38,445 nt of DNA from Candidatus Omnitrophota bacterium (GTDB lineage: Bacteria > Omnitrophota > Gorgyraeia > JABMRN01 > RBG-13-46-9), in NCBI GenBank assembly GCA_016782445.1, contig JADHYM010000011.1:1-38445 (forward strand). Direction: 5' to 3'. Positions 3,288-38,445 of this stretch are shown piece by piece (the stretch's first letter is position 1; every line of letters begins with the position of its first letter). Below the pieces are notes generated by a model. That model was given only the letters and a program-made list of their open reading frames with translations. It had not been told where the DNA came from and searched no databases. A program made the position numbers and the translations under genes.

Positions 3288-3338
3288 TATCTCTCCTCGA
3301 TTTATTTTAAGCTTTTGTTTTGCTAACAATTCATGTGC

Positions 3339-3367
3339 ATAATATAGCATATTTTTTGTTTTCAAGT
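3339..3367 (-). promoter_or_regulatory. candidate sigma70-type promoter of the left giant gene
   Basis: On the minus strand a -10-like TATTAT lies at 3339-3344. Upstream, TTGAAA at 3360-3365 gives a 15-nt spacer, or ACTTGA at 3362-3367 gives 17 nt. The region is AT-rich and sits 52 nt before the GTG start, leaving a leader of about 45 nt that contains a good ribosome binding site. The spacing is not ideal, so this is a moderate call. Confidence 0.4.
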
Positions 3368-3399
3368 GTCACAGGAGTGTATTAGTTAGGTAAAAATAG

Positions 3400-22100: not shown

Positions 22101-22780
22101 TTAATTCCCAGCCTCTTATGCTCCTGCGGCATTACCTCGACTCTTTTAAGATGCTTTTGGGCGATCCCTTGAAACTTTCGGAGCAATGCCTCTTCGGCCT
22201 TTTTTTCCTTTCGCACGGGCGTTACCGGCTGAAGTATAAGCGGAATATCCGGACTTTCCTGCGATATAACCTCTTTTGCCCGCATTATATCATCTGCCGA
22301 CGTAGAGGAAGTAATAACGGCTTTTACAAAAACCTGTTTTCTTTTCGCGATTTTCAAGAACTTGCCGTGCTCCTCCCACAGGGGCCCTGTTCCGGCCGAG
22401 GAAGGAAGCTTAAAGTCCATAGCAATTATATCCAGAAAATCTATTACCTTCAAAAGTTCCTCATGCAAAGTGCCGTTTGTCTCAAGGTATACGGGTTTTT
22501 TATAAAAAAGTCTGTAGCTTGCAATGAATTCCTTTAAAAAATCCGCCTGACATAAGGGCTCTCCGCCCGTAAGAGCAACTGAATGATAAGGCTGATCGTG
22601 GGCAAGTATTTTGCTCATAAGGGAATCCTTCGTAAAAGTCTTATAAGAGGTAAGCGGTGTGTCGCAAAAGCTGCAAGAGAGATTGCACCCGTAAAACCTC
22701 ACAAAAACCTGCGCCGCGCCAAGATATAGGCCCTCGCCCTGCAATGAAAAGAATATTTCGGATACTTTAGCTTCACGCAT
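22097..22780 (-). CDS. queE: 7-carboxy-7-deazaguanine synthase (radical SAM)
   Basis: QueE uses SAM and a [4Fe-4S] cluster to rearrange 6-carboxytetrahydropterin to 7-carboxy-7-deazaguanine. The cluster motif is CNLSCSFC (CxxxCxxC) at about residues 33-40, directly after FVRFYG. The SAM-binding TGGEPL motif follows, and the N-terminal EIFFSLQGEG is typical of QueE. The 227 residues fit. It overlaps queC by 8 nt upstream and queF by 4 nt downstream. Confidence 0.95.
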   Translation of the reverse strand: MREAKVSEIFFSLQGEGLYLGAAQVFVRFYGCNLSCSFCDTPLTSYKTFTKDSLMSKILAHDQPYHSVALTGGEPLCQADFLKEFIASYRLFYKKPVYLETNGTLHEELLKVIDFLDIIAMDFKLPSSAGTGPLWEEHGKFLKIAKRKQVFVKAVITSSTSADDIMRAKEVISQESPDIPLILQPVTPVRKEKKAEEALLRKFQGIAQKHLKRVEVMPQEHKRLGIK

Positions 22781-23432
22781 AATATGGATCTTTCATTTTT
22801 AATTCTTTAAATGCGCGCGACCTAAAAAAACAGCTGTCGCAGGTACCGCATGGCTTCTTTAAGCCCTTGTAGCATGACCATGTATGCCTTAAGGGAGTGC
22901 CGACGCGAAGCGCGGTTTTTATTATTTCTTTTTTTCCTTTTCCCAAAAGCGGCGTGTGCAGCTTTATTGTTTTTCCGGATTTCATTCCCGCGTTTACTGC
23001 CTTTTTAAACGCGTTGAAAAAGGCCCTTCTACAATCAGGATATCCTGAATAATCTTCTGTATGAGCGCCTATGAAAACAGCTTCTGCTTTTATATTTTCC
23101 GCAAATCCAAAAGCCATAGAAAGAAAAACCAGGTTCCTTGCGGGAACATAGGTCGAGGGAATAGAGTTTTTTATTTTTTTAATTCCCCGCCCTGACGGTA
23201 TTTTCTTATTCTCATCGAGAAGTGAGCTCATCTTTCCCGGAAAAGGAATTTTTAAAACTATGTGAGGCACGCGCGCTGAACGCGCGATTTTTTTCGCGCA
23301 TTCGATCTCTTTCTTGTGCCTCTGTCCGTAATTAAAGGTAAGCGCGTGTGGAGTAAATCCTTTTTTCCTGGCAAGATACAGCGTGGCTGAGGAATCTAAC
23401 CCACCTGAAAGAAGGACAACGCACTTTTTCAT
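22773..23432 (-). CDS. queC: 7-cyano-7-deazaguanine (preQ0) synthase
   Basis: QueC converts 7-carboxy-7-deazaguanine to preQ0 with ATP and ammonia. The PP-loop LLSGGLDSSATLYLA is at the N-terminus, and YVPARNLVFLS and AHTEDYSGYPDCR follow. The C-terminal zinc ligands are the Cys residues in CYKGLKKPCGTCDSC. The 219-residue length is normal. It begins 2 nt after the queD stop and overlaps queE by 8 nt, giving a tight pathway operon. Confidence 0.96.
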   Translation of the reverse strand: MKKCVVLLSGGLDSSATLYLARKKGFTPHALTFNYGQRHKKEIECAKKIARSARVPHIVLKIPFPGKMSSLLDENKKIPSGRGIKKIKNSIPSTYVPARNLVFLSMAFGFAENIKAEAVFIGAHTEDYSGYPDCRRAFFNAFKKAVNAGMKSGKTIKLHTPLLGKGKKEIIKTALRVGTPLRHTWSCYKGLKKPCGTCDSCFFRSRAFKELKMKDPYYA

Positions 23433-23874: not shown

Positions 23875-24393
23875 TCACTCAAAATATTTCTTCGTAACCC
23901 CATCCCACTTACCCTGCGCCTTCAGTATGAGTTCGCATACTTCACGCACCGCGCCATATCCGCCTTTTTTCTCCGTGACGTAATGCGCTAGTTCCTTGGC
24001 TTCTTTTATCCCTACCGGTACGGTTATCGCAAGTCCGACTCGCTTTAAAATGGGAAGGTCTATAAGCTCATCTCCTACGAAGCATATTTCTTCTTCTTTT
24101 ACCCCAAAGTCTCTTTTTACCGAAGGGAGAAGTTTTAATTTTAAATGATTAGCGTAAATCTTTTGTATCCCGAGCTGGTTCGCGCGAAACTTTACGATTT
24201 TAGACTTGAGTGCTGTCATAATAGCGACATGAAGCCCGGCTTTAGCGGCCAGCACTATTCCTAAGCCGTCGTGGATATTGAAATTTTTTATCTCGTCCCC
24301 GTAACTCCCTATAACCACGCTTCCATCTGTCAGCACCCCGTCCACGTCAAGAAGCAGGAGCTTTATCTTTTTCGCACGTTCTTGTATGTCCAT
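23875..24393 (-). CDS. kdsC: 3-deoxy-D-manno-octulosonate 8-phosphate phosphatase
   Basis: KdsC is a HAD-superfamily phosphatase that releases Kdo from Kdo-8-phosphate. HAD motif I is LLLLDVDGVLTDGS with the nucleophile Asp. Later motifs are the Thr/Ser region IMTALKSK and the Asp pair in CFVGDELIDLPIL. At 172 residues with no cap domain it is the tetrameric C0 type. Its ATG shares one base with the kdsD stop (TAATG). The kdsB-kdsA-kdsD-kdsC order makes a full set from arabinose 5-phosphate to CMP-Kdo. Confidence 0.95.
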   Translation of the reverse strand: MDIQERAKKIKLLLLDVDGVLTDGSVVIGSYGDEIKNFNIHDGLGIVLAAKAGLHVAIMTALKSKIVKFRANQLGIQKIYANHLKLKLLPSVKRDFGVKEEEICFVGDELIDLPILKRVGLAITVPVGIKEAKELAHYVTEKKGGYGAVREVCELILKAQGKWDGVTKKYFE

Positions 24394-25361
24394 TAAACCA
24401 GCCCCGCTTTCAGTATGTCCTGTACGTCCAGTAGCCCCACGGGCCGTCCCTTTTCATCCACGACCGGGATCTCGTCTATCTTTTTTGAGCGGAGTATCTG
24501 AAATGCCTCTGCGGCCAATTTTTCTTTTCTTATGGTAACAGGCGACTTGGTCATAACTTCTTTTATTTTTCTCCTCGCTATGTTAATCGATGAGTTGATG
24601 TGCCTCCTCAAGTCCCCGTCGGTAAATATTCCTACGAGCATACCTTTTTTATTTACAACGCTTGCCGATCCCGCTCTTGATTTTGTGATTTTAATAAGCG
24701 CGTCTTTGACGAGCGCGGTTTCTTTAACTATGGGGCTTGAGGCGCCGGTACGCATTATATCGCTGACTCGAAGTAAAAGCCTTTTTCCGAGAGCCCCTCC
24801 CGGATGGTAAAAGGCAAAGTCTTTTTCCCTGAAACCTTTTTTGTCGAGAAGGCTCACGCACAATGCGTCCCCCACCGCGAGCATGGCCGTTGTTGAGGTC
24901 GTGGGCGCCAGGCCCAGCGAACAAGCCTCTTTTTTCACGGAAGCGTCAATTACGAAATCTGAATTTTTCGCCAGGGTAGATTTTTTATTTCCCGTAACAG
25001 CTATAAGACGCGAGCCTATTTTTTTAAGTATCGGCAAAAGCTTCAGTATTTCCTCTGTCTCGCCGCTGTTTGAAAAAGCAATAAGGCAGTCGTCCCTCGT
25101 AACGCGCCCAAGGTCGCCGTGCAGGGCCTCTGCCGGGTGAAGGTATAAAGACGGTGTTCCGGTCGAAGAAAGCGTTGCTGATATTTTTTGCGCGATAAAG
25201 CCGGGTTTGCCCATGCCCGTTACGATTACTCTCCCCTTGGATTTTGAGAGAAAATCAACCGCCTTTTCAAAATTCCTATCAAGTTTCTTCGCGAGATCCA
25301 GTATCGCCTTTCCCTCTGTCGCAAGGACGCTGCACGCTGTCTTTATACTTTTGGATGACAT
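24393..25361 (-). CDS. kdsD: arabinose-5-phosphate isomerase (KpsF/GutQ family)
   Basis: The enzyme interconverts ribulose 5-phosphate and arabinose 5-phosphate for Kdo synthesis. The SIS domain (about residues 30-180) has GMGKPGFIAQKISATLSSTG, SNSGETEEIL and PTTSTTAMLAVGDAL. Two CBS domains follow (about 205-322, with VGIFTDGDLRRHI and IDEIPVVDEKGRPVGLLDV). The 322 residues match the family. Start and stop codons overlap with kdsC and kdsA by one base in TAATG, indicating coupling. Confidence 0.95.
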   Translation of the reverse strand: MSSKSIKTACSVLATEGKAILDLAKKLDRNFEKAVDFLSKSKGRVIVTGMGKPGFIAQKISATLSSTGTPSLYLHPAEALHGDLGRVTRDDCLIAFSNSGETEEILKLLPILKKIGSRLIAVTGNKKSTLAKNSDFVIDASVKKEACSLGLAPTTSTTAMLAVGDALCVSLLDKKGFREKDFAFYHPGGALGKRLLLRVSDIMRTGASSPIVKETALVKDALIKITKSRAGSASVVNKKGMLVGIFTDGDLRRHINSSINIARRKIKEVMTKSPVTIRKEKLAAEAFQILRSKKIDEIPVVDEKGRPVGLLDVQDILKAGLV

Positions 25362-26176
25362 TAGATCACGCTCTCCAATCTTTTTATTTTCTTCAAGAAC
25401 CCCCCGAGCTCTTTGAGCCGGAGCATGTTCGGGCCGTCGCTTTTAGCGCGTTTCGGGTTCTCGTGGACCTCTAGAAAAAGCGCGTCCACGCCGCAGGAAA
25501 CAGCCGCGTAAGATAGGGGTTTTATAAATTCGCTATTTCCGCCGCTTCGCGTTCCGAGTCCGCCCGGGATCTGGACCGAGTGAGAGGCGTCAAAACACAC
25601 AGGAAAGCCTAGTTTTTTCATGATCAGGATCGCGCGAAAATCAGACACGAGCATGTTGTAACCGAAACTCGTGCCGCGTTCAGTAAGCATGATATTTCTA
25701 TTGCCGGCGCGTGTTATTTTTTCCACTATGTTTTTCATGTCCCGTGGCGAGAGAAATTGGCCTTTTTTAACGACTACTGTTTTTTTTGTTTTTGCCGCCG
25801 CAACGAGAAGGTCTGTCTGGCGCGAGAGAAATGCCGGTATCTGAAGCGCGTCGAGAACGCGCCCGGCAATCTTCGCCTCATCCGGTGAATGCACGTCAGA
25901 GAGAACAGGAACGCCTATTCTTTTTTTAACCTTGCTTAAAATCTCGAGGCCCTTTGCGAGCCCCGGCCCCCTGAACGATTTTATTGACGAGCGGTTAGCC
26001 TTGTCGTAGCTTGCCTTAAAGACAAAGCCCATTCCGGCACATTTAGCTATCTCGGAAATTGCCGCGGCGTGATAGAGGCAGGATTTTTCTGATTCAATAA
26101 CGCACGGCCCCGCAATCAGGGCTATGGGATTCTGTCCGCCGATTTTTACTTTTCCTATTTTAACCTGTCTTGACAT
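25361..26176 (-). CDS. kdsA: 3-deoxy-8-phosphooctulonate (Kdo-8-phosphate) synthase, metal-dependent class
   Basis: KdsA condenses arabinose 5-phosphate with phosphoenolpyruvate. The TIM-barrel motifs are GPCVIESE, FKASYDKANRSSIKSFRGPG, LSDVHSPDEA, TERGTSFGYN, DASHSVQIPGG and LEVHENP. The Cys in GPCVIES replaces the Asn of the E. coli-type enzyme and marks the metal-requiring class, as do the downstream Asp and Asn in KSDGPNML. The length is 271. Its start lies inside the end of kdsB (17-nt overlap). Confidence 0.96.
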   Translation of the reverse strand: MSRQVKIGKVKIGGQNPIALIAGPCVIESEKSCLYHAAAISEIAKCAGMGFVFKASYDKANRSSIKSFRGPGLAKGLEILSKVKKRIGVPVLSDVHSPDEAKIAGRVLDALQIPAFLSRQTDLLVAAAKTKKTVVVKKGQFLSPRDMKNIVEKITRAGNRNIMLTERGTSFGYNMLVSDFRAILIMKKLGFPVCFDASHSVQIPGGLGTRSGGNSEFIKPLSYAAVSCGVDALFLEVHENPKRAKSDGPNMLRLKELGGFLKKIKRLESVI

Positions 26177-26945
26177 TTTTTAAAGCCTCTTCCGCTTTTT
26201 TAAGATCCTCCGGCGTGTCAACGCCGATCGTATCATAATCCGTTTCTATCGTTTTTATCTTATATCCGTTTTCCAACGCCCGGAGCTGTTCCAGTTTCTC
26301 GGCCTGCTCTAGCGGGGATTTCGGCAGGTTCGTATATGTAAAAAGAAAATCCTTCGTGTAAGCATAAATACCTATATGCTTGTAAAACACCGCAGAACCG
26401 CCTCCGGACTGACTCAGTCCGGAGCCTTCGGACTGAGTCAGTCCGGAGGCGGTTTCCCGCACATAGGGTATCGGATATCTCGAAAAATAGAGCGCATATC
26501 CGTCTTTGTCAACGGCAACCTTCACGACGTTCGGATTTTCGAGCTCGGCTTTATCAGTCACTTTCCTTATAATAGTTGCCATGGGAATTGATTTATCTTC
26601 AAGTAGTGTTTGCGCGAGATTGTCTATCATGCTGTAGTGTATGAGCGGCTCATCCCCTTGAATGTTCACGATTACTTCCACGTCCACGGCGTTTACCACT
26701 TCTGCTATGCGATCCGTACCTGAAGGCTGGTCCTTCGAGGTATAGACAGCCTTACCGCCGAACATTTCCGCAGCCTTTATGACCTTCTCTGAATCCGTGG
26801 CGATTATGAGATCCTCAAGAACGTGCGATTCCTTGGCGCGCTCCCACACGTACTGAATGAGGGGCTTGCCGGAAATCTCAGCAAGCATCTTGCCTTCGAA
26901 CCTCGAAGCCTTCCATCTTGCCGGTATAATGCCTATTGCTTTCAT
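26160..26945 (-). CDS. kdsB: CMP-Kdo synthetase (3-deoxy-manno-octulosonate cytidylyltransferase)
   Basis: KdsB activates Kdo with CTP. Family motifs are IIPARWKASRFEGKML, GKPLIQYVWERA, NIQGDEPLI, and near the end LEQAEKLEQLRALENGYKI and IGVDTPEDL. Between PYVRE and the conserved KHIGIYAYTKDF is a foreign-looking Gly/Ser/Gln-rich segment (SGLTQSEGSGLSQSGGG). It is encoded by a 59-bp near-perfect palindrome at 26396-26454. The frame is kept, and the position corresponds to a variable loop in the family. The ATG at 26945 is the natural family start. The gene lies just after family A repeat copy 4. Confidence 0.95.
   Translation of the reverse strand: MKAIGIIPARWKASRFEGKMLAEISGKPLIQYVWERAKESHVLEDLIIATDSEKVIKAAEMFGGKAVYTSKDQPSGTDRIAEVVNAVDVEVIVNIQGDEPLIHYSMIDNLAQTLLEDKSIPMATIIRKVTDKAELENPNVVKVAVDKDGYALYFSRYPIPYVRETASGLTQSEGSGLSQSGGGSAVFYKHIGIYAYTKDFLFTYTNLPKSPLEQAEKLEQLRALENGYKIKTIETDYDTIGVDTPEDLKKAEEALKNVKTG
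26396..26454. repeat. 59-bp palindrome inserted in frame in kdsB
   Basis: Two perfect 26-bp inverted arms (26396-26421 and 26429-26454) flank a 7-nt centre. Each arm itself contains the small palindrome GGACTGACTCAGTCC or its complement. In kdsB it encodes a low-complexity Gly/Ser/Gln stretch. Confidence 0.92.
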
Positions 26946-26960
26946 GATTTTTCCTAGCTT

Positions 26961-27091
26961 CGGCTGCGGTTGCGTTATTCGGTTGCGTCGCGCGAAACGT
27001 CGGTCGTCGTACGGTTGTGTCTACTTTTTTCCGCAACCGATTTACGCAACCGTTTCCCGCGACGCCACCGCAACCGATAGACATTCGACGG
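26961..27091. repeat. intergenic palindromic repeat, family A, copy 4
   Basis: It has the same core as the other copies (GCGAAACGTCGGTCGTC, a central hairpin GGTTGTGT...CGCAACC-type, then GTTTCCCGCGACGCCACCG). It ends about 9 nt from the hldE-type kinase stop and lies between that gene and kdsB. Confidence 0.85.
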
Positions 27092-27100
27092 GTTTATTGT

Positions 27101-28102
27101 TCAAGCCTTATCAATCTCTTCCTTGATTCGCCCGAGAAGCTCATCCTCGGTCACAACCGCAATACCGACCTTGCCTACCACGATTCCTGCAGCGCAATTC
27201 GCTATATGGGCCGCCTGTATGGGATTGGCGCCTGATACAAGTGAAAGCGTATACGCGCTCACGACTGTGTCGCCCGCGCCTGATACGTCAAACACTTCCT
27301 GCGCTACCGTATCTATCTTCTTCGAGGGTTTTCCTTTCTCGAATACCATCATCCCGTCTTCTCCGAGAGTAATGAGGACAACGCGGGCATTAAATTTCTT
27401 AAGAAGTAGAGAGCCTGCTCTTTTGAGAGTCGCTTTATCTTTTATCTCGAATCCTGCGGCCCTTGCGGCCTCGTGCACGTTCGGCGTGAGAAGCGTGACC
27501 CCTTTATAATAAGAAAAATGTTCTTCTTTCGGATCAACAGCTATGATCTTTTTCTTTTTCTTCGCGAGTGGTATGACAGCTCCTAAGAGCTTTGGCGTCA
27601 CAAGGCCCTTCCCGTAATCCTCTATGACAATGGCATCTATTTCGTCGATAACGCGCTCAATAAAACCTGCTATTTTCCTCGCAATGCTGTCTTTTATAGG
27701 GTCTTTTTTCTCTTTATCAATTCTGACGACCTGCTGCTGATGAGCTATTACCCGGGTTTTAAGGATCGTGGGCCTCTGTGAATCCGTAATAATGCCTTCT
27801 ATATTTACGCCCTTATGCTCGAGCTCGCCTTTTAAAATCGCGGCCCTTTCGTCGTTTCCGACAACGCCTACGAGATAAGTTTTTGCTCCGAGTGAGCTTA
27901 AGTTATTCGCCACGTTCGAGGCGCCGCCGGGCATGAAGCTTTCGTTTTTAGCCCAGACTACGGGAACAGGAGCCTCCGGTGATATGCGTGAGACCTCGCC
28001 CCATATGAACTCGTCGAGTATAAGGTCCCCCAGGACAAGTATTTTCTTATCTTTGAAGTTTGATATTGCCCGCTTTAATGTATTGAAATTCTGGCTTTTC
28101 AT
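27101..28102 (-). CDS. hldE: D-glycero-beta-D-manno-heptose-7-phosphate kinase (RfaE domain I / HldE N-terminal type)
   Basis: This PfkB-family kinase phosphorylates heptose 7-phosphate at C1 for the LPS inner core. Seen motifs are GDLILDEFIWGEVSRISPEAP, the PfkB signature GGASNVANNLSSLGA, IEDYGKGLVT, and the catalytic DVSGAGDTVVSAY. At 333 residues it covers only the kinase domain; the cytidylyltransferase domain of bifunctional HldE is absent and must be encoded elsewhere if used. It is the first gene after a strong promoter and leads into the kds genes. Other PfkB sugar kinases are possible, but the N-terminal motif and context favour heptose. Confidence 0.9.
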   Translation of the reverse strand: MKSQNFNTLKRAISNFKDKKILVLGDLILDEFIWGEVSRISPEAPVPVVWAKNESFMPGGASNVANNLSSLGAKTYLVGVVGNDERAAILKGELEHKGVNIEGIITDSQRPTILKTRVIAHQQQVVRIDKEKKDPIKDSIARKIAGFIERVIDEIDAIVIEDYGKGLVTPKLLGAVIPLAKKKKKIIAVDPKEEHFSYYKGVTLLTPNVHEAARAAGFEIKDKATLKRAGSLLLKKFNARVVLITLGEDGMMVFEKGKPSKKIDTVAQEVFDVSGAGDTVVSAYTLSLVSGANPIQAAHIANCAAGIVVGKVGIAVVTEDELLGRIKEEIDKA

Positions 28103-28552: not shown

Positions 28553-31500
28553 TTACGCTGCCCGAAGCGCTTTAAGCCTGTGGCGATATTCCTTATATAG
28601 CGCCTTTATGTTTTCGGCAGGGTTAGGAATCGGATCGAGCATGATGAGCCAGTCACAGGATTGGCCCCGTTCAGCTGCAAATTTTGAGGCTATTGCAGAG
28701 GACAATGCCTGAGCTAACGAATAGATGCCTTTTTCGTAACCGAATAGAACTATCGGCGTATCTTGAGACTTGGCTATTTCTTTTAATTCTGTTTCGTTGT
28801 CTTCCTGCGCGGGGCCCTTTATAAAACCCAGGATCTCTCTTCCGCCTCTTGCTTTTGCGAGTCGTATAATTTTTTCTACTTCACGAATTTCATCACCGTT
28901 ACGCGGCAATTCACTTTCTTTTATGGTTACAATATCTCGGACCGCAAAGCCAGTCTCTTCTATCATGATTTTAAGAACCTTCGCATTTTCCTGTTTCCTC
29001 GCAAATAACACAATTTTGCCGCCATTTAATAATTTGTGTTTTATTAATATATTTTTTATGGCGTGCTGCAGGTCATAGACGGCTACCTTTTCCAGTATAT
29101 CGTCGGCATCAAGTATTATGCTTTGCCCTGTTTTATCGTATTGAACAACTTTTTTCTCCAGTTTTCGCGCTTCATCGAGGAATGCCTTTTGCAGAGGCTC
29201 AGCCAGTGCCTTCAATGCCTCGAGCCACTCGTACCACTCTTTCTCCAGCTCTTTCGGCAGCGTCGGCCTACTTGCTTCAGACTGCGCAAAATCATCATAC
29301 ATATCACTATCTGACTGCGCCTCAAGATTAGGTCCTCTTTTTCCCAAAACATGAGTTGCGCACCTGAAAGATCCGGGTTTCATAGAAGGCGACCTGTATC
29401 CTTTTTCCGCTAATAACTCCATCACATCCCAGGGATCACCCCAATGCAAAGTAATAAATTCGCTGCTTTTTTCAGCATTACCTCCCGCTACCTCACGCAT
29501 TCTTCTTGCGCGTTCATCCGCCTCGGGAATCGAGTCCCCCGTAAACGGCGGCCAGTCGTCTTCTAAAAGAATAACTCCATCTCGCGCAAGCCCGGCTTCG
29601 CCCCTTCGTCCCGGCACCGGCGTATCCAAGGGGACGTTTCTCTTTGCTATAACTTCTTTACTACCGACAACTTCTGATGGGTCATTTTCCAATTCTTTAG
29701 GCTCGCCGGATTGGCAAATGTCATTTCCTAACCCTTTATCCTGCAATGCCTTGGGTGAAAGCGAAACGTCCCCTTTGCTGCCTGTGTCTTTGCTATCCAA
29801 TCCGGAAGTTGGTCCTGTTTTATCTTTATTCAATCGTGCGGCGAACCCGCTCTTGCTGCCGAATATGCCCTTGTTTTTCACACTACTCAGACCGTTAGCG
29901 CGAGTCGCGTATCCCCTCAATATGCTCGGCTTGGGAGTATTCGGATTCTCCTTATCTTCCTTGATGGCCCTGTGAATAAATTCCCGGAGACCTGCGTTCT
30001 CATGCATACGCCATTTTATAAGGGCTTCAAGATCCGTAAGTTCTACTGTTTTCTTCTCTTTTTTTATTACTTTCGCCATAACCTTTATGCTTACATTGAC
30101 ACCGTTTTCTCTCAATATATTTACAGCTCTTCTAATGTTCTGGTCCCATGAGGCTAAAGCAGAATTAAGCACATCTTTTGCTAAAGAATTCATACTCAAA
30201 AACTTTGTAACTGTGTTTTTTGCATAACCTGCGTAATTCCCTATGTCCCTCGCCGACATCGGTTTTCCGTGTACATTAAGCATTCTTATAGCGCTTAATA
30301 TTTTGTCCTTCATGCCACTTCCTTTTTGAGGCGTATAATACATTGGCCGGGACGCTATTAACCGTTCGCTATTATGTCTTTCGGTCAATCTAAAAGCAAA
30401 GCCTCTCGGTACTTCGTTAATACTTGCTATATCATCCGGCTGGGTTTCTTCTGCCCACTGCTTAAGCGCAGCTAATTGGGCATACGTATTATCATGGTGT
30501 CGGCTGCAAACCTGATTAACCTGGTCGGATATGGCACGTCTTAGAGCATCGGAATCGGCGCCAGCTTCCACCACCAAACGCGCTTCACGCTCTAAGCAAT
30601 TAGGGACAGATCGATCCGCAATCTCCGGGGTATCCCCGGACCCGGACTGAACTCCGGTGTTATCCGCTGGGAGCGCCCCTCGCGTTGAACCTGCGGCTGG
30701 TTCCTTTTGATGAGCAGACACGATTCTGACCTGTGCCTTTTTGATACTGTCTTGAACAAATCGTATAATTTCTGTTTCCCACTTCGCATCAGGTCTGCCT
30801 TTATTTACCTTTAATTCTCTTAGAAAGTCGCACAGACCCTTATCACGGATAACCTTAACAGCAATCGCTTCGGAAACACTGCCTAAGGTGATTTCTTGAG
30901 CCATAAAACCCCTTGCAACCTCAGATATCACTAGCGTCCGAAGTGTCGTTCCGTCATCCCCTGATACATAAGTGTTCATGCTGACCATGTAAGTGCCGTC
31001 GTTAACACCCAAAGGCGGGTTATCGCTCTGATTACTGAAATGCCTATCTATCATATCGCCGCGATCCCGCTGCGTAAAAAGATGAACGTCCGCCACTACC
31101 GCCTCATCGCCCCCTTTGCTGCCTGTGTCTTTGCTATCCAATCCGGAAGTTGGTCCTGTTTTATCTTTATTCAATCGTGCGGCGAACCCGCCGCAGTTGC
31201 CGAGGATGCCTTTTGATTTCGAGCCGGACGTACCGGCCGGGTCGGTTTGCGTTTCCTCTTTCATGCCATTATCGTGAACCGCAAGAAGTTGAAGAAGTTC
31301 ATCTTTACCATAGGGGCGATTCCGTTCGAGGCCTTCTCCAGACATCGCTTCTTGAGCGTCTATGCCAAAGCTAAACTCCAAATGACCTGTTAAAGTATCA
31401 AGTTTTCTGCGGATAACATCCCAAAGAAGCTCCGAACCAACCCCTATAAATCTTCGCTCACCAGCCGCCGTATGCCTGTTTTCCGGTTTAATCTCCTGAT

Positions 31501-34500
31501 TTGTTATACGCGTTATTTCCTCTTCATGAAAAACAGATATAAACCCTTCCATATCATAGCCTGCGGTACCATTAACCTCAGGCGCGCTTACAGCAAGATA
31601 GATAAATCTGCGCGGATGATCATAAACTTTAGACAGTAGCCCGTCAGTAAGAATATCTTTTAAGAGCCGTATCGTATTAGGATGTACAAGGCCTGTTTCT
31701 ACCATTTTCAGATAATCGCTATCCCATCTTTCGATTGATTCAAGGATGTCTTGAGATATTCTGGGATTACTTTTTATATCTTTTATACTAAAAATCTGCA
31801 TTTTGACAGGCTCCGCAGATTTACCTGAAATTCTATTTCGATAAACTGAAATTGTCGTAACCGAGGGGGCGTTTCGCTGCGCTACATCTTCTTTAGTGCC
31901 ATCCTTTCGTCCTTTTGTCGCTTCCTTGCCGGCAGGCAGGCCTTCATCCGTCGGAACGCGAGCATCGCTACTCGCCTCCCCCCTCATCGCCTCCGCGCGT
32001 TCATCCGCCTCGGGAATCGAGTCCCCCGTAAACGGCGGCCAGTCGCGTTCTAAAACATCCTGAGAATCAATGCTGTTTATAAGGTCCTCTATTGATAAGC
32101 GAAGTTTAGACATGCGCTGATACGGATTTTCCGGAAAAATTTCTTCCGAATATCCGGATTCATCTTCTTCCATAAGTTCTTCTCCGGTAAGTTCGCTCTC
32201 CTCGATTGGTTGAAGTTCAATTTGTTCTTCCAGGTCATCTAAAATTTCCGAGAGCCTTATCAGTCCTGAACACGCCGTTTGCGGATAGTTTAATATGTCA
32301 TCTTCTATTATTGATATTGCGCGTTTTAGCATTGCCAGCGCTTTTTCGATATCATCTTCTTCTTCAATGCCTTCAAATAATTTCGAATATCTAATTTCGA
32401 AAGTTTTGGTTTGTTCCCTCCGCAATTCCGGTGCAGGTGGATTTTCAGCCCGGCTGGTTGAGCCATATCTTTCATACACGTTTTTTCTTATCTTTGATTC
32501 AAGGCCCGGGTCGATTCCCGAATCCTGCAGCAGCAAAAGAAGCCGTCCGTAAATCAAACCTGCGTTATTGTGTGCCTCCCCGGATTTTTCCGGGTTTTTT
32601 CGGCACAAACGCCTGGCTCTTTCATCAAGAGCTTCGGCTTTTTCTTTCAGGGCACTTATTACTGATAGCAAATCCTCGCGGTTATATTTATTTGATATGC
32701 CTTTTATCTTGTCGCAGCTAATCCTGTCTGTTTTTGGAGTGCAGAGTTCATCGATTGTGTTTTGGACATCCGGCTTGCATGCTTTCATGGCCTTTCCCAT
32801 CTCCTCCAGAAACGGCTTGCCTGCGGGCGTTTCCAGCCAGTAATATAACGCTCGAACGCTCACGTCCTCAAGCCCCATATTCTTCATTGTATGAGAAAGA
32901 AGCGGCACGGTTATTCGCGCGCGCGGCATGTTTTCTTGGATGTTATCGAGCGCTTTGCGCACGTTCTTTTTATGCACTTCGGAAGAATGCTTTTTTTGAA
33001 TTTGGATCTCCAGTTTCTTGGCCGTTCCCGGGCTTTTTCTCTCAATGCGTTCGGCTAAAGCCCATATTACTTCCTTTGAAATTTCCGTTACACCTGCCAA
33101 GATAGACGGTGTTGTCTTCTCACCGATAGACTTTTGACGGTCAATGGCCACTAAAAGAGTCCTAAGGTGTGACTGAAGTTTTTGGGAAAGGCCGAATTTT
33201 TTAATAGACAGTCCTGTTTTTCTTCTGCACTCTCTATCCGCAAATCTTCTTGCTTCTTTAACAGTCATGCCGCATTTCGAAGCGAATCTCCTCTCAAGCG
33301 AATAAAGTATAGAATCGCGCAAGGCGCGCGCTCTCTTCGTCTTTTGCTCTGTAAACCAGACGTTAAGGGAAGCTGGTCTAATATCCTCAAAGCCAAGATC
33401 CTTCATGACCTTGCAAATAAGCGGGAATGTGATGTCTTTTTCCGGCATGTTTTCGTCAAGCCACGCCACGGATTTTTCCAGGCTATCAAAACGCGTTTTG
33501 ATTAAAGTTTTTTCATCAACAACGCCTAATTTCCGGGCGTTGGCCCAGCCAATTCTTTTAATCATGCCGTATACCCTGGTAGTTTCAATGCCGGCATGTG
33601 CGGATATTTTATATGCCGTGGGAAGACACCCCATTGCATCAAGCAAAAAAGTTTTCCATATAATTATCTTGAGAGTGGCAATTCCCTGAAGAATTAGATT
33701 ATATCTTGCTACATCTATTTTCTGAAATCCCTGGATGTACTTTGTCAGGCGAAAATCTTCTTCCCCGAAAACTTTTCTCTGTAATATACGCAAGAGATAG
33801 TGCGCGTTGCAGGGTTTATTTAGCGTTCTATCGCTCCACCCCGACCAGGATTCGCCTTCTTTTTTAAGTAACTTTAAAACTTTCGCAACGTCGATCTTTG
33901 TGCGCCGACCATTTGTCTCTACCGTCAACCCGCCTTTTTTTAAAGCGATCTTTAAATCCCCTGTTTGCATAAGATACTCGCATATTTCGTGGAATACGGC
34001 AACAGGCTCGTCTACCAGGTGCTTAGCTAAAGCGATAATGTTTCGCGCAGCCCAGGAAAAGCCGAAAAGGTCCTTATGCGGATTGACGTAAGCCCTAAGC
34101 TCTATATCAGGGCATAAATCAAGCAGTCTTGCAACAACCTGTTTATTCTTTTTTGCCGCGGATAAAATTCCGGGAATAAAATTTTTCAGCATGCGTTTTC
34201 GCTGGTCCATTTTGAGCGTAAGGCGCTTTCGCTTTTTTGTTTTCCGATCCACGAGAGATAATAGCATCCTGTATCTAGCCGGGTTTTTTAGTATATTGAT
34301 TATCTCGTAAGCCTTGCCGATATTCCCGGAATGGCCGGAATCGCCTGCGAACGGCAGGTCGTTTTGCTTTCCGCCGAACCAGTAGAGACTTCCGTCTGTC
34401 CAGCGGTGAATGTGATTTATCTTAAGCTCCTCGAGCGCTTCTTCGAGCGAAAATGTAACTTCGCGCGTATTGGAAAGCGAAGGAAACCCGTTCGGCATGG

Positions 34501-37500
34501 TTATAATTCCTTCGTTCGCTTTGGCGATCCTGCGGAGCTTTTTCTCTACTAATGTACGGCGACGCCAGGCTTCAAAGATTTTTTTGGAAATCGATTTGCC
34601 CCGCACGCTTATTGCAACCACCCGGTGACCAGCGAGGGTGATTTCGCGGAATTTAAGCCTTTTCCTACCCGAGCGTCTATATTCATCGATAACATTTTTG
34701 CAAGCCGTACTATTATCCGCGAACGAGGTACTTACAAATACCTGTCCCGGCTCGAGTTCCCTATCGAGCTTATCCACAATATCCCTTGTTATTTTTTCTC
34801 TGCCTACGCCGCGCGAGGCGGTAAAATAAAAATAGATGACGTCGAATCCTCGGATCGGGAACTTGAAGAAATCCGCCTCTTCATACCGGACATTGGTGCG
34901 GCTAAGCCCTGCTTTTGTTTCAAGAAACGTTCGAAAATTACCTGCGAGTTTCACACGCTCCGGATCATGCTCTATCGAGACTATATTAGCCTGTGTCCTT
35001 CCAAGCCTTAAGGCCGCCAGGCCGTACCCAGTGCCTACATCAAGAACCCTGACACCCGGTCCTATTTTAAATTTTTTCATAAGCGCATTAAGAACCGCCG
35101 GAGGAGTCCTGTAAAGAGTGCCGTAATCTTCGGAATATTCTGACGAGAGCAACCGGCCTGTTGTCCGCAGAAATTCGTCAAAAGACGCCCGCAGAGGGTC
35201 ATTCAAGCGGCGCGTGCGTTTCGGCATACAGCGTTTTAAAATATTAAGGGCCCTTTTTATTTTTATCTCGGTGCTCTTCGACAGAACAACGGATATATCT
35301 CCTCTTCTTAGAAGTTCGCTCAAAATACCGTTCAAATACAGCACTAATTCTTTATCCGCGTACGGGTTCATAGAATTTTTTAAAATATGCAAAAGTCGCC
35401 CGCAAAGAGATGCAATATATTCATTCGCGCTCATTCGTATCACACCTGAAGCAACAAGGCTTTCTATTTCGCGCTCAAGCTCCTCTCTGTATTCCGAAAG
35501 TTTCAATTTGTCGATGAGTTCGGCGTAATTTCCGACTAAAATTTTTCCCGCGTGAATAGAGTCAAACTGCCAGTAAGAGGGGTCTATTAAAAGAGTGGGC
35601 TCATCCTGCCCGGTATATACGGCAATCCACCTGTGATGCCGCCCGTCCGGAAGATAGTGGCCCGGAACAATTTCCACCCGACAAGGGCTTTTGCCGCCTA
35701 AGGGAAGGTTTAAATGCCAGGAAAGAAATTCTGCCAAAAGCTTTGTCGTTATGACGCACTTTTGAAGACCCATATTTTTGATTCCGGCTTCTTTTAACGC
35801 TTCAAAAAATCTTCGCTCTATTTTTTGGATAAATAAGGCTATGTTTTTACCTTTATCCGCCGCCTCCCATGCCTCCCGCCACTCCTCGCGCACGCTCCCC
35901 TCATCCATCTCCGAGCCGCGGGGCTCGCGTAATCTGGCATTTCTAACCAGGTTAGACTGGCTTGATTGTCCTGCAGTAAATTCCTGCCGCAAGCCATTCA
36001 CCTCTTCCTGAACCATTTTTCTAAGATCTTCCTCATTCATGCCCTCAAACGGTTTTACACCCTTGAAGAGGCCTTCTTCATAATAGTAATCCGTCAATCT
36101 GTAGTTTATATAAAGCTTTCTTTCGGGATTAGAAAAAAGCCAGTAGAACAACACGGATAGACTTCCGGGTTTTCCGTCTTTTATCTCTTCCGTAATACCG
36201 GGGTCATATTCCTCCGCCATATCAAGGATTATATCGGTATCGCCTTCGGTAAAGGCCCTAAAAAGCGGGTCTCTCGAGGCTCTTTCCGCTATCGTACCCC
36301 ACCCTTCTGTAACCGCATTTCCGAAAACAAGCGGGCTGTGTCCGGAAAGAAAATAATCAGTGACCGAAACATTGCCCCTGTAATCAATGTCCAGTCTTGT
36401 ATATAGCATTACGATATTGGACATCATTTTGTAATGGAATTTCTCCTCCGGCATTTCTTTCAGGGCTCGCCCCAGTCTTCCCACAGGATTTTCGTTAAAC
36501 CGAACCTCTATCTCTCGTCCGCCTTCCATTACAAGGACAAAACGCTTTCTGTCTTTGTAAATAATAATGTTTCTTTTGTCAAGCTCATCTCTCAAGGCGG
36601 GAAAAGCCTTTTTCTCCCATAGGTCCTTTAGCATAATAAATGTAAGCTCGCATTCCGGAAATTCGCTGAAAACCGCCTCCATGAGATTCACTATTTTTTG
36701 TGCAGATATGGCATTGCCCGAAAGGTGTATATCGTCAAGCGAGATCGTTATCATGAATTTATTTCTTGAAGGGGTTTTTTTATTGCGCACTTCAAAGGCC
36801 TTTTTTACTTTCCTGACAAATTTCCTGGCGTATTCCGGGCTTTTCATGGTGCAGGCGCTTGTGGTAAACGAAGTCACGGGAAACCGCCTGATTATCTCAA
36901 AAAGGTCCTTGCGAAGGGCTATCTCGCCTCCTGAAAGATGCCAGTTTTTATTTTTGTCAAACTGGTTTTCAGGGTCAAAGACCTTCTCCATATCATCTAT
37001 GGGCATGTCTCTTCCCGGGGTTGCGTCAGCATCAACATAACACATTGGACATTTGTTGCCGCATCGCAGAGTGGGCACCAAAACAATTCCTACAGGAGCC
37101 CACCTTCTCTTTTGTTCGGGGACAATTTCCTCTTTTCCGGGCATACACGAACGCCTGAAGTTTTCCACATACTGCTGAAAATCGTAGTTTGTATCAAGCT
37201 CATCTTTTACGACGCGTGGCCCAAAAATTTCTTTCGCCCTAAGGGCGGTTTCTTTACTATACGGGTCGGAAATGCCTCTACCGGCAATTCTGTCTTCTGA
37301 GCCCGACCAGTCCATCATGCCCTTGAAATAGTTCTTCGGAGAGAGATCGCGTGCTTTCATTTCAGCAAGCGAAAGAGTAGCAGGTTCCGGTTCACCGGGC
37401 TGCGCAAGCCCTGAAGTTTCAAATGGGTTAGAAGCGTCTACTCCAAACATGTAGCTGCTTTCTGGGTCTCTGTTGACAGTTATAATTTCTCTTAGTTTGC

Positions 37501-38445
37501 CGAAAACCTGAGCCGAAGAAATGCCGGGACAGCGGGCTAAAATCTCACCTTCCGTGTGCCCGTCAAGAAACATATTGATAAGTTCTTGTTCTCCTGCCTT
37601 CAACATCTTTATCGCTATCCCCAGACCTTCTCTGAGGAAAGCTTTATCTACTTCGGCTTCCACATTACCAGATCCCGCTATAATATTTTCTGCTTCGGGT
37701 ATAATGTCTAAAAGCAGGAGCTCCTTGGCATACCCCCTGATAACCGCCCTTAAGGACCGGAAATCTCGGCCGAAGAATCTTAATATCCATGCAGCCGTTC
37801 TGCCGTATTTACGCTCAAATTCATATCTCGTTGTATTTACCGGCATCTGTTCTATTTCAAGTTTGACGGCATCAAAGTCGATGCTCAAGATTTTGTCCAA
37901 TAATCCTGCGGGGTTATCCGTAAAAGCAAATCCTCTTAACATGCTTTTGATAAAATGCTCCGGGTAATCCTTGCCTTTTTCCCGCATAATAGTTCTTTTT
38001 AATTCAACCAATCTATTGATTTCATCTTGTGTACGGGAGCTTTTTAAAATGAAAGCAATATGAGTGTCCTTGGTAATGCCTAAGCCTCTTAGAGCTTTAA
38101 TGAGGGTTTTTATTTCTGGCTGTTTGCGAGAGGTTCCTAAAATGCGAGCGATGTAAGTGGCCTCTGTGATGCCTAAGCCTTTTAGGGTTGCGATAAGGCT
38201 TTTTATTTCTAGCTCTGTGCGGAAGCTCTGTAAGATAGGGGTGATGTGAGCACCCTCTGTAATGCCCAAGCCTCTTAGAGCTTTAATGAGGGTTTTTATT
38301 TCTGCCTCTGTGCGGGAGCTTTTTAAAATGAAAGCAATATGAGTGTTCTTGGTAATGCCCAAGCCTCTTAGAGCCTTAATGATGGTTTTTATTTCTGGCT
38401 GTTTGCGAGAGGTTCCTAAAATGCGAGCGATGTAAGTGGCCTCTG
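28553..38445 (-). CDS. giant multidomain protein: helical repeats, radical SAM, transglutaminase-like, methyltransferase, GNAT-like (5' end outside window)
   Basis: One frame runs from the window edge to TAA at 28553, at least 3296 codons. The real start is upstream; the TTG at 38362 lies inside a repeat. Order, counting from the edge: 31-residue helical repeats (1-150). Radical SAM domain with CGNKCPMC (Cys at about 461, 465, 468) and LSGGE, then a SPASM-like tail without cysteines (IDYRGNVSVTDYF, about 690). Transglutaminase-like fold with Cys near 896 (KCVITTKLL), His near 937 (GRHHRW) and Asp near 954 (LLIDPSYW). Class I methyltransferase with LDVGTGYGLAALRLG (about 1130). A segment with HEICEY. 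Two similar HTH-like segments. An acidic coiled region. A GNAT-like part with FIGVGSELLWDVIRRKLD (about 2335). Duplicated linkers. An unrecognised C-terminal domain. Overall function unknown. Confidence 0.9.
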   Translation of the reverse strand, partial: EATYIARILGTSRKQPEIKTIIKALRGLGITKNTHIAFILKSSRTEAEIKTLIKALRGLGITEGAHITPILQSFRTELEIKSLIATLKGLGITEATYIARILGTSRKQPEIKTLIKALRGLGITKDTHIAFILKSSRTQDEINRLVELKRTIMREKGKDYPEHFIKSMLRGFAFTDNPAGLLDKILSIDFDAVKLEIEQMPVNTTRYEFERKYGRTAAWILRFFGRDFRSLRAVIRGYAKELLLLDIIPEAENIIAGSGNVEAEVDKAFLREGLGIAIKMLKAGEQELINMFLDGHTEGEILARCPGISSAQVFGKLREIITVNRDPESSYMFGVDASNPFETSGLAQPGEPEPATLSLAEMKARDLSPKNYFKGMMDWSGSEDRIAGRGISDPYSKETALRAKEIFGPRVVKDELDTNYDFQQYVENFRRSCMPGKEEIVPEQKRRWAPVGIVLVPTLRCGNKCPMCYVDADATPGRDMPIDDMEKVFDPENQFDKNKNWHLSGGEIALRKDLFEIIRRFPVTSFTTSACTMKSPEYARKFVRKVKKAFEVRNKKTPSRNKFMITISLDDIHLSGNAISAQKIVNLMEAVFSEFPECELTFIMLKDLWEKKAFPALRDELDKRNIIIYKDRKRFVLVMEGGREIEVRFNENPVGRLGRALKEMPEEKFHYKMMSNIVMLYTRLDIDYRGNVSVTDYFLSGHSPLVFGNAVTEGWGTIAERASRDPLFRAFTEGDTDIILDMAEEYDPGITEEIKDGKPGSLSVLFYWLFSNPERKLYINYRLTDYYYEEGLFKGVKPFEGMNEEDLRKMVQEEVNGLRQEFTAGQSSQSNLVRNARLREPRGSEMDEGSVREEWREAWEAADKGKNIALFIQKIERRFFEALKEAGIKNMGLQKCVITTKLLAEFLSWHLNLPLGGKSPCRVEIVPGHYLPDGRHHRWIAVYTGQDEPTLLIDPSYWQFDSIHAGKILVGNYAELIDKLKLSEYREELEREIESLVASGVIRMSANEYIASLCGRLLHILKNSMNPYADKELVLYLNGILSELLRRGDISVVLSKSTEIKIKRALNILKRCMPKRTRRLNDPLRASFDEFLRTTGRLLSSEYSEDYGTLYRTPPAVLNALMKKFKIGPGVRVLDVGTGYGLAALRLGRTQANIVSIEHDPERVKLAGNFRTFLETKAGLSRTNVRYEEADFFKFPIRGFDVIYFYFTASRGVGREKITRDIVDKLDRELEPGQVFVSTSFADNSTACKNVIDEYRRSGRKRLKFREITLAGHRVVAISVRGKSISKKIFEAWRRRTLVEKKLRRIAKANEGIITMPNGFPSLSNTREVTFSLEEALEELKINHIHRWTDGSLYWFGGKQNDLPFAGDSGHSGNIGKAYEIINILKNPARYRMLLSLVDRKTKKRKRLTLKMDQRKRMLKNFIPGILSAAKKNKQVVARLLDLCPDIELRAYVNPHKDLFGFSWAARNIIALAKHLVDEPVAVFHEICEYLMQTGDLKIALKKGGLTVETNGRRTKIDVAKVLKLLKKEGESWSGWSDRTLNKPCNAHYLLRILQRKVFGEEDFRLTKYIQGFQKIDVARYNLILQGIATLKIIIWKTFLLDAMGCLPTAYKISAHAGIETTRVYGMIKRIGWANARKLGVVDEKTLIKTRFDSLEKSVAWLDENMPEKDITFPLICKVMKDLGFEDIRPASLNVWFTEQKTKRARALRDSILYSLERRFASKCGMTVKEARRFADRECRRKTGLSIKKFGLSQKLQSHLRTLLVAIDRQKSIGEKTTPSILAGVTEISKEVIWALAERIERKSPGTAKKLEIQIQKKHSSEVHKKNVRKALDNIQENMPRARITVPLLSHTMKNMGLEDVSVRALYYWLETPAGKPFLEEMGKAMKACKPDVQNTIDELCTPKTDRISCDKIKGISNKYNREDLLSVISALKEKAEALDERARRLCRKNPEKSGEAHNNAGLIYGRLLLLLQDSGIDPGLESKIRKNVYERYGSTSRAENPPAPELRREQTKTFEIRYSKLFEGIEEEDDIEKALAMLKRAISIIEDDILNYPQTACSGLIRLSEILDDLEEQIELQPIEESELTGEELMEEDESGYSEEIFPENPYQRMSKLRLSIEDLINSIDSQDVLERDWPPFTGDSIPEADERAEAMRGEASSDARVPTDEGLPAGKEATKGRKDGTKEDVAQRNAPSVTTISVYRNRISGKSAEPVKMQIFSIKDIKSNPRISQDILESIERWDSDYLKMVETGLVHPNTIRLLKDILTDGLLSKVYDHPRRFIYLAVSAPEVNGTAGYDMEGFISVFHEEEITRITNQEIKPENRHTAAGERRFIGVGSELLWDVIRRKLDTLTGHLEFSFGIDAQEAMSGEGLERNRPYGKDELLQLLAVHDNGMKEETQTDPAGTSGSKSKGILGNCGGFAARLNKDKTGPTSGLDSKDTGSKGGDEAVVADVHLFTQRDRGDMIDRHFSNQSDNPPLGVNDGTYMVSMNTYVSGDDGTTLRTLVISEVARGFMAQEITLGSVSEAIAVKVIRDKGLCDFLRELKVNKGRPDAKWETEIIRFVQDSIKKAQVRIVSAHQKEPAAGSTRGALPADNTGVQSGSGDTPEIADRSVPNCLEREARLVVEAGADSDALRRAISDQVNQVCSRHHDNTYAQLAALKQWAEETQPDDIASINEVPRGFAFRLTERHNSERLIASRPMYYTPQKGSGMKDKILSAIRMLNVHGKPMSARDIGNYAGYAKNTVTKFLSMNSLAKDVLNSALASWDQNIRRAVNILRENGVNVSIKVMAKVIKKEKKTVELTDLEALIKWRMHENAGLREFIHRAIKEDKENPNTPKPSILRGYATRANGLSSVKNKGIFGSKSGFAARLNKDKTGPTSGLDSKDTGSKGDVSLSPKALQDKGLGNDICQSGEPKELENDPSEVVGSKEVIAKRNVPLDTPVPGRRGEAGLARDGVILLEDDWPPFTGDSIPEADERARRMREVAGGNAEKSSEFITLHWGDPWDVMELLAEKGYRSPSMKPGSFRCATHVLGKRGPNLEAQSDSDMYDDFAQSEASRPTLPKELEKEWYEWLEALKALAEPLQKAFLDEARKLEKKVVQYDKTGQSIILDADDILEKVAVYDLQHAIKNILIKHKLLNGGKIVLFARKQENAKVLKIMIEETGFAVRDIVTIKESELPRNGDEIREVEKIIRLAKARGGREILGFIKGPAQEDNETELKEIAKSQDTPIVLFGYEKGIYSLAQALSSAIASKFAAERGQSCDWLIMLDPIPNPAENIKALYKEYRHRLKALRAA
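29508..29558. repeat. 51-bp direct repeat inside the giant gene, copy 1
   Basis: Identical to 31995-32045. It encodes a linker containing DWPPFTGDSIPEADERA. Confidence 0.9.
29770..29850. repeat. 81-bp direct repeat inside the giant gene, copy 1
   Basis: Identical to 31111-31191. It encodes a linker containing GFAARLNKDKTGPTSGLDSK in the same frame. Confidence 0.9.
31111..31191. repeat. 81-bp direct repeat inside the giant gene, copy 2
   Basis: Identical to 29770-29850, about 1.3 kb away. Perfect identity over 81 bp suggests recent copying or gene conversion, since flanking codons differ. Confidence 0.9.
31902..31957. repeat. in-frame composite palindromic element inside the giant gene (copy 2 of the ispG element)
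   Basis: Ungapped match to 5305-5360 in ispG (48 of 56 identical by eye). It encodes DEGLPAGKEATKGRKDG, in the same frame as in IspG. Confidence 0.85.
31995..32045. repeat. 51-bp direct repeat inside the giant gene, copy 2
   Basis: Identical to 29508-29558. After two mismatches the match resumes for eight more bases. Confidence 0.9.
37990..38445. repeat. 93-bp tandem repeats encoding 31-residue helical units
   Basis: Five units read from the edge: 38443-38351, 38350-38258, 38257-38165, 38164-38072, and a partial one from 38071. The pattern is xxTHIAxILxSSRTxxEIKx followed by LIKALRGLGIT. Units 1 and 4, and units 2 and 5, are nearly identical, so a three-unit (279-bp) block was duplicated. 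More units probably lie beyond the window. Confidence 0.92.

What the first reader, a model, noticed from the sequence alone, without database searches (positions are those of the whole stretch)
28553..38445. Giant protein combining radical SAM, Cys-protease-fold, methyltransferase and acetyltransferase-like domains
At least 3296 residues contain a CxxxCxxC radical SAM domain followed by a SPASM-like tail that has lost its cysteines, a Cys-His-Asp transglutaminase-like domain, a class I methyltransferase, HTH-like segments and a GNAT-like domain. The individual motifs are visible. That they form one modification machine, perhaps acting on a peptide or on the protein itself, is inference. I know of no characterised system with this set in one chain. 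The domains may instead be processed into separate proteins.
Basis: partly seen in the sequence, partly recalled or inferred. Interest (0 to 1): 0.85.

Follow-up and report, generated by a model that had tools for sequence, protein, structure and literature searches.

The report
Exported giant protein with swappable enzymes
This is the back part of a roughly 4,400-residue protein that a tiny uncultured bacterium probably exports; relatives keep the same front and back ends but swap the enzymes in the middle (including oxygen-sensitive radical SAM enzymes not expected outside a cell), which points to a modular export system, perhaps for acting on other cells.

Summary
The open frame is real: minus strand, 3296 residues, cut at its 5' end by the contig edge. 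Its missing N-terminus lies on contig C4: a 139-nt exact in-frame overlap, the same length as all other graph-type contig overlaps in this assembly, gives about 4376 residues (copy number of a 31-residue mTERF-like repeat unresolved). Radical SAM, Cys-His-Asp transglutaminase-like and class I methyltransferase modules are supported; the SPASM cysteines are absent; the claimed GNAT domain is not supported in the window, but a genuine one lies on C4. The protein is not an isolated 'modification machine'. Seven complete ORFs in other Omnitrophota carry the same signal peptide plus head domain and the same ~200-residue C-terminal domain, with unrelated middles (radical SAM, B12-radical SAM, GH77, PPDK, histidine kinase-like ATPase, GNAT). 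Two paralogues in one genome share a 73%-identical head and nothing recognisable in the middle. The transglutaminase-like module occurs almost only in giant ORFs, up to 70,450 residues. Best reading: a Sec-exported polymorphic giant protein with constant ends and exchangeable, mostly cytosolic-type enzyme cargo. Delivery into another cell is inference. Giant Omnitrophota ORFs are known; I found no description of this architecture.

The parts
28553..38443 (-). Giant ORF, C-terminal 3296 residues (P0001); continues upstream on contig C4 (L005:6546-9920 +) to about 4376 aa
38000..38443 (-). 31-residue helical tandem repeats, mTERF-like (9 copies counted across the C4/C2 junction, true number unresolved)
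   Evidence: Pfam mTERF 33.2 bits, cut-off 23.1, on the joined array
37286..37384 (-). Linker motif ARDLSPKNYFKGMMDWSG (third copy; two more on C4 between GNAT / methyltransferase / repeats), partly repeated at DNA level (80-90%)
36095..37255 (-). Radical SAM module with cysteine-less C-terminal tail; CxxxCxxC at P0001 461-468; homologous to a module of another giant ORF in genome G002 (23% over 453 columns, E 1e-10)
35516..35833 (-). Transglutaminase-like Cys-His-Asp module (C896, H937, D954), a module found almost only in giant Omnitrophota ORFs
34709..35131 (-). Class I SAM methyltransferase module (motif DVGTGYG)
33734..34372 (-). Module with HExxE motif (FHEICEYL; HExxH in the homologue L049), shared with giant ORFs in genomes G009 and G005
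   Evidence: no Pfam match
31106..31213 (-). Linker GFAARLNKDKTGPTSGLDSKDTGSKG, first copy; second copy at P0001 2866 (106 nt, 91.5% identical DNA)
28556..29200 (-). Conserved C-terminal domain (CTD), Rossmann-like alpha/beta predicted fold, pLDDT 86, pTM 0.85
28556..28660 (-). C-terminal tail (strand, Pro, amphipathic helix ending in Ala) resembling the tails of most giant ORFs in this genome
3..3368 (-). Second signal-peptide-bearing giant ORF (1122+ aa) at the other contig end, same class of protein

Best explanation
The window holds the C-terminal three quarters of a Sec-exported, modular ('polymorphic') giant protein. Constant parts: a signal peptide with an AXA site, a ~200-residue head domain (HExxE motif), and a ~200-residue alpha/beta C-terminal domain ending in an Ala-terminated helix. 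Variable part: a middle of enzyme modules, mostly cytosolic types (here GNAT, a methyltransferase, mTERF-like repeats, radical SAM, a transglutaminase-like module, a methyltransferase and several unknown modules). Shown: the ends, the swapping, the retained active-site motifs, and the strong association of the transglutaminase-like module with giant ORFs. Inferred: the head and tail serve export, retention or processing; the transglutaminase-like module acts on the giant protein itself or its neighbours (cleavage or cross-linking); the other enzymes need SAM, acetyl-CoA or a reduced Fe-S cluster, so they most plausibly work only after the protein, or pieces of it, enters the cytoplasm of a host or prey cell.
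For: N-terminus found on C4 with a 139-nt exact in-frame overlap, a unique edge in a contig graph where all 12 such edges are 139 nt. Head and CTD co-occur in seven complete ORFs of 1103-3534 aa from other Omnitrophota. Paralogues L062 and L160 in one genome: head 73%, CTD 48% identical, nothing significant between. Middles: rSAM+B12-rSAM+MTase+uridine kinase, RidA/chorismatase, PPDK, GH77, GWD, HATPase. Signal-peptide-like start in 28/28 giants against 136/413 background ORFs; C-terminal Ala in 20/23 against 37/413. Transglutaminase-like module: 30 places in 28 of 384 genomes, all in ORFs >=500 aa, 24 of them >2000 aa, up to 70,450; canonical PF01841 control: only 2 of about 77 places in frames above 2000 aa. 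Active-site motifs largely kept. CTD in 23 of 384 genomes, nearly always in long ORFs.
Against: No direct evidence of export, delivery, processing or activity. No holin, pore, injection or adhesin module was recognised in this protein. Cargo types (GH77, PPDK, GlgB, cytidylate kinase, sigma-54 activator) look like a sample of housekeeping enzymes rather than classical effectors. The signal-peptide test is a simple heuristic that also fires on a third of ordinary ORFs. The CTD has no confident structural relative and the head none at all, so their roles are guesses.
Confidence: 0.5

Rival explanations
1. Surface or coat protein in which captured enzyme genes are bulk: an exported, rapidly evolving giant protein accretes in-frame genes that serve as spacer or structural mass, with the transglutaminase-like module cross-linking the coat; the enzymes are not used as enzymes.
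For: Cargo resembles a sample of ordinary cytosolic genes; some motifs are altered (GGDEF in L161, Fic and HATPase variants, a Ser replacing the Cys in one transglutaminase-like module); repeated DNA linkers between modules; giant ORFs make up about 7.8% of the assembly; V. archaeovorus giant protein was proposed as a coat (PMC10066038).
Against: Most active-site motifs examined are intact (CxxxCxxC in every standard radical SAM module and a CxxxxCxxC in the B12 type, HxHxDH, GAFTGA, P-loops); the GH77 module is only ~30% identical to other GH77-like frames, so it is not a fresh capture.
Confidence: 0.27
2. Cytoplasmic or membrane-anchored polyprotein: the N-terminal hydrophobic segment is an anchor or is not used for export, and the chain is cut in the cytosol by its own Cys-His-Asp module into separate working enzymes.
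Against: An AXA-like site follows the h-region in the head family; positive residues before the h-region predict export of the rest; the ends stay constant although the enzymes change, unlike a metabolic polyprotein; most head+CTD homologues lack the transglutaminase-like module.
Confidence: 0.13
3. A self-contained peptide or self-modification machine (RiPP-like: radical SAM, protease, methyltransferase and acetyltransferase acting together).
For: The module set resembles RiPP tailoring enzymes; NCBIfam weakly links the radical SAM core to peptide maturases.
Against: The modules do not stay together in homologues; no SPASM cysteines; no recognised precursor, transporter or leader-recognition domain; neighbours tested are LPS and housekeeping genes.
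Confidence: 0.06
4. Assembly chimaera or several genes misjoined.
For: The ORF runs off a contig end inside a repeat array, so repeat number is uncertain.
Against: The 3296-codon frame is within one contig; seven single complete ORFs with the same ends exist in other MAGs; unique 139-nt graph edge.
Confidence: 0.03

Closest known systems
Giant ORFs of Omnitrophota (Seymour et al. 2023, PMC10066038; V. archaeovorus 39,678 aa)
   Same: Same phylum, very long single ORFs, predicted export; shares the transglutaminase-like module with ORFs up to 70,450 aa
   Different: Described giants exceed 20 kb, many carry multiple transmembrane helices, adhesion or carbohydrate domains and few annotated domains; this one is about 13 kb, has no transmembrane helix after the signal peptide except one marginal segment, and carries cytosolic-type enzymes between conserved ends
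Polymorphic toxin / effector systems (own knowledge)
   Same: Constant trafficking parts, hypervariable exchangeable enzymatic parts, paralogues in one genome with near-identical heads and unrelated cargo
   Different: Here the variable part is central and the C-terminus is constant; no immunity gene identified; cargo is not a known toxin
Multifunctional-autoprocessing multi-effector proteins (e.g. MARTX; own knowledge)
   Same: Giant exported chain with several effector modules and an internal cysteine-peptidase-like module
   Different: No RTX repeats; the protease-like module is transglutaminase-like, its activity is unknown, and it is absent from most homologues
Transglut_core PF01841
   Same: Cys-His-Asp in register, hhalign 94%, E 1.5e-7
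   Different: Not detected by Pfam directly; confined to long, mostly giant ORFs, whereas canonical PF01841 members here lie almost all in ordinary ORFs
Radical SAM/SPASM maturases (NCBIfam TrsS, WgkB)
   Same: CxxxCxxC core, GGE motif
   Different: Cysteine-less tail, embedded in an exported giant chain, weak score

Membership tests
Radical SAM superfamily | CxxxCxxC cluster motif and GGE motif | tested here: met
   P0001 461-468 CGNKCPMC, SGGE downstream
Radical SAM superfamily | Profile score above curated cut-off | tested here: inconclusive
   Pfam 21.7 bits against 29.5; NCBIfam TrsS E 9.7e-9 but far below its equivalog cut-off
SPASM domain | Auxiliary-cluster cysteines C-terminal to the core | tested here: not met
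   No cysteine in P0001 599-870
Transglutaminase-like superfamily | Cys-His-Asp triad with superfamily spacing | tested here: met
   Profile-profile match to Omnitrophota PF01841 members, triad aligned, reversed control negative; triad conserved in most of 13 homologues
Transglutaminase-like superfamily | Fold | not tested
Class I SAM methyltransferase | Motif I and profile match | tested here: met
   DVGTGYG; Methyltransf_31 26.4 bits (cut-off 27), PDB MitM E 4.5e-4
GNAT acetyltransferase (in the window) | Profile match | tested here: not met
   No Pfam hit at E<=10 for the candidate region; the C4 part has PF00583 31.1 bits, above cut-off
mTERF repeats | Profile match above cut-off | tested here: met
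   33.2 bits against 23.1 on the joined array, but repetitive queries inflate scores and ALS_ss_C scored equally
Omnitrophota giant ORF (>20 kb) | Length above 20 kb | tested here: not met
   About 13.1 kb joined, repeat number uncertain
Omnitrophota giant ORF (>20 kb) | Modules shared with giant ORFs | tested here: met
   Transglutaminase-like module in ORFs of 29-70 kaa
Polymorphic toxin system | Constant trafficking region with variable enzymatic region | tested here: met
Polymorphic toxin system | Variable C-terminal toxin domain | tested here: not met
   The C-terminus is the constant CTD
Polymorphic toxin system | Adjacent immunity gene | tested here: inconclusive
   Window neighbour downstream is a PfkB kinase, then Kdo genes; not searched systematically
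Sec substrate | Signal peptide with cleavage site | tested here: met
   MKRHIVPKCIAIYVALCVFLSTIPGIEEARA|LAP; heuristic only, no SignalP

The most novel reading that the evidence does not exclude
Omnitrophota run an undescribed polymorphic export system whose giant proteins carry whole metabolic-type enzymes, including radical SAM and B12-radical SAM enzymes, through the Sec pathway for use inside another organism's cytoplasm, with constant head and tail domains as the trafficking code.
Probability: 0.3. Interest if true: 0.92.

Novelty: new variant of a known kind. Interest (0 to 1): 0.76.

Why it matters
Giant ORFs of Omnitrophota have been called poorly conserved and hard to assign. Conserved ends with swapped enzymatic middles give a handle: a head and a tail profile now retrieve such proteins, and predict that they are exported and modular. 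If exported radical SAM enzymes are active, they would be, to my knowledge, the first radical SAM enzymes meant to work outside the producing cell's cytoplasm. The transglutaminase-like module links these mid-size proteins with the largest predicted bacterial proteins and is a small, expressible candidate for processing or cross-linking.

Tried and rejected
RiPP machine: rejected as leading idea because modules do not travel together. GNAT domain in the window: no profile support. CTD relationship to the other C-terminal domains in the genome (C13 pair, C15/C23 pair): profile comparison negative beyond the tail helix. CTD fold: only weak Rossmann-like matches, TM <= 0.42. Head domain: confident model (pLDDT 83) but no significant PDB match; BepA and ZMPSTE24 (M48 metalloproteases) appear only among the insignificant matches and are not used as evidence. 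Phage origin: no phage match, no viral contig with the CTD. Recent capture of own genes: no paralogue of the window protein's modules among ordinary ORFs of the genome, and the GH77 test gave ~30% identity only. Tail-only HMM: giants rank high but E-values are weak. One Pfam query (sixth sequence) had a mistyped start and is ignored. Literature searches found no paper joining Omnitrophota giant proteins with radical SAM, transglutaminase or polymorphic effectors in the held open-access library; the West-Roberts 2023 preprint on giant genes and the Kizina 2022 paper are not held, so novelty against them is not checked.

Full report
OBSERVATION. The frame is on the minus strand, window 38443..28553, 3296 residues, open at its 5' end because contig C2 ends there. 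The genome is a 1.0 Mb, 86% complete draft in 37 contigs. Codon-position composition is coding-like throughout (second-position G+C lowest in nearly every 300-codon bin).

THE MISSING HALF. A DNA search with the repeat end hit only one other contig, C4. C4 ends inside a 1125-residue ORF with the same 31-residue repeats. The last 139 nt of C4 equal the first 139 nt of C2 reversed, in frame; the joined ORF has 4376 residues. I read the whole draft genome and compared all contig ends: twelve pairs overlap by exactly 139 nt, so this is the assembler's overlap length, and C4-to-C2 is a unique edge. The repeat number (nine counted) is not resolved. The C4 part adds a signal peptide (MKRHIVPKCIAIYVALCVFLSTIPGIEEARA|LAP), a conserved head domain, a GNAT domain above Pfam's cut-off and a methyltransferase-like module (NCBIfam 3e-5).

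DOMAINS. Radical SAM: CxxxCxxC at 461-468, SGGE, weak but consistent profile hits. No cysteines follow in the tail. The Cys-His-Asp module (C896, H937, D954) is 41% identical to a module of a giant ORF in genome G005. A profile of 11 homologues aligns with canonical Transglut_core sequences from the same class at 94% probability, E 1.5e-7, triad in register; the reversed control gives 0.3%. Methyltransferase. The repeat array matches mTERF above cut-off, with the caveat that repeats inflate scores. A further module has HExxE (HExxH in one homologue) and is shared with two other giant ORFs. The HTH-like and GNAT-like claims inside the window lack profile support.

CONSTANT ENDS, VARIABLE MIDDLE. 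A search of the order with the C-terminal half hit mostly the last ~210 residues, at the very C-termini of other long ORFs. This C-terminal domain occurs in 23 of 384 Omnitrophota genomes, in frames mostly of 400 to 6953 aa, and all ten named relatives are Omnitrophota MAGs. Seven complete single ORFs carry both the C4-type head (21-41% identical) and this C-terminal domain: L048/L064 (3534 aa), L060 (2238), L062 (2859), L156 (1638), L157 (1103), L160 (1556), L163 (2074). Their middles do not resemble each other. Contents by Pfam/NCBIfam: methyltransferase, radical SAM/SPASM (1e-37), B12-radical SAM and uridine kinase-like in L060; RidA and chorismatase in L048; methyltransferase and GNAT in L062; PPDK in L156, GH77 in L157, histidine-kinase ATPase in L160, water-dikinase parts in L163. 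L062 and L160 lie in one genome: heads 73% identical, C-terminal domains 48%, nothing significant between. L060 and L156 (same genus) likewise share only the ends. This is the signature of module replacement.

EXPORT. All 28 giants with a visible N-terminus have a signal-peptide-like start by a simple rule that accepts 136 of 413 ordinary ORFs; 20 of 23 complete C-termini end in Ala against 37 of 413. The rule is crude, but an AXA-like site follows the h-region in the head family. Apart from one marginal segment the chain has no further hydrophobic helix.

GIANT-ASSOCIATED MODULE. The transglutaminase-like profile finds 30 places in 28 of 384 genomes; every one is in a frame of at least 500 residues, 24 in frames above 2000, the largest 70,450. 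Canonical PF01841 in the same class: about 77 places, nearly all in frames below 1400, two in giant frames. The contrast argues that this module belongs to giant-protein biology.

STRUCTURES. The C-terminal domain models well (pLDDT 86, pTM 0.85) as a Rossmann-like alpha/beta domain with no confident PDB relative. The head models well (pLDDT 83) and matches nothing significantly.

ACTIVE CARGO OR FILLER. Motifs are intact in most modules examined: CxxxCxxC in five radical SAM modules, CxxxxCxxC in the B12 type of L060, HxHxDH, GAFTGA and Walker A, a P-loop-like motif; a few are altered (GGDEF variant, Fic variant, one transglutaminase-like Cys to Ser). A GH77 module is only ~30% identical to other GH77-like frames, so it is not a fresh duplicate. 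This favours function without proving it.

GENOME CONTEXT. The genome has at least a dozen such giant ORFs, about 7.8% of the assembly, one with a strong B12-radical SAM module. The window gene sits between heptosyltransferase-like genes (C4, own reading of the sequences) and a PfkB-Kdo gene cluster. Module linkers are partly repeated DNA (61-106 nt at 90-97%), offering a route for recombination; that role is inference.

LITERATURE. Seymour et al. 2023 (PMC10066038) report giant ORFs >20 kb in many Omnitrophota, with few annotated domains and poor conservation, and connect them with symbiosis or predation. PMC12057145 and PMC11573180 repeat this. Nothing found in the held library describes the constant-end, variable-middle architecture. 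The West-Roberts preprint and the Kizina paper could not be read.

MECHANISM. Most likely: Sec export, head and C-terminal domain for sorting or retention, transglutaminase-like module for cleavage or cross-linking where present, and enzymatic cargo acting in another cell. Steps shown: architecture, swapping, conserved motifs. Steps inferred: export in vivo, processing, delivery, activity. Confidence in the architecture is about 0.85, in delivery about 0.3 to 0.4.

Noticed in passing
window 3-3368 (-): A second signal-peptide-bearing giant ORF (1122+ aa) is cut at the other contig end; no Pfam domain above cut-off, a weak sigma-70 region 4-like stretch.
   Followed up: partly
window 5305-5360: A dispersed ~56-nt DNA repeat here (in the ispG region) also occurs inside the giant gene (joined residues 3243-3261); other short repeats recur on C15, C37, C10 and C32, one inside another giant ORF.
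   Followed up: partly
G000 contigs C3, C4, C8, C15, C27, C34: Several contig breaks fall inside giant ORFs, so short-read MAGs probably truncate these proteins systematically.
   Followed up: yes
G000:C13:24416-32938 (L106:4416-12938): Another 2841-aa signal-peptide ORF with B12-binding plus radical SAM (5e-30), glucosamine-6-phosphate isomerase-like and PAS domains.
   Followed up: partly
L168 (G043:C32): A 4681-aa open frame with two sigma-54 activator AAA modules, GlgB-like amylase, histidine phosphatase, HD and a transglutaminase-like module.
   Followed up: no
G172:C2, G273:C2, G160:C8: Open frames of 70,450, 57,756 and 38,661 residues carrying the transglutaminase-like module.
   Followed up: no
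window 24393-28102 (-): Kdo/heptose gene cluster (SIS-CBS isomerase, KdsA-like, KdsB-like, PfkB) directly downstream of the giant gene; heptosyltransferase-like genes upstream on C4.
   Followed up: partly
window 22097-23432 (-): QueC and a short radical SAM protein (231 aa) side by side, probably ordinary queuosine synthesis.
   Followed up: no
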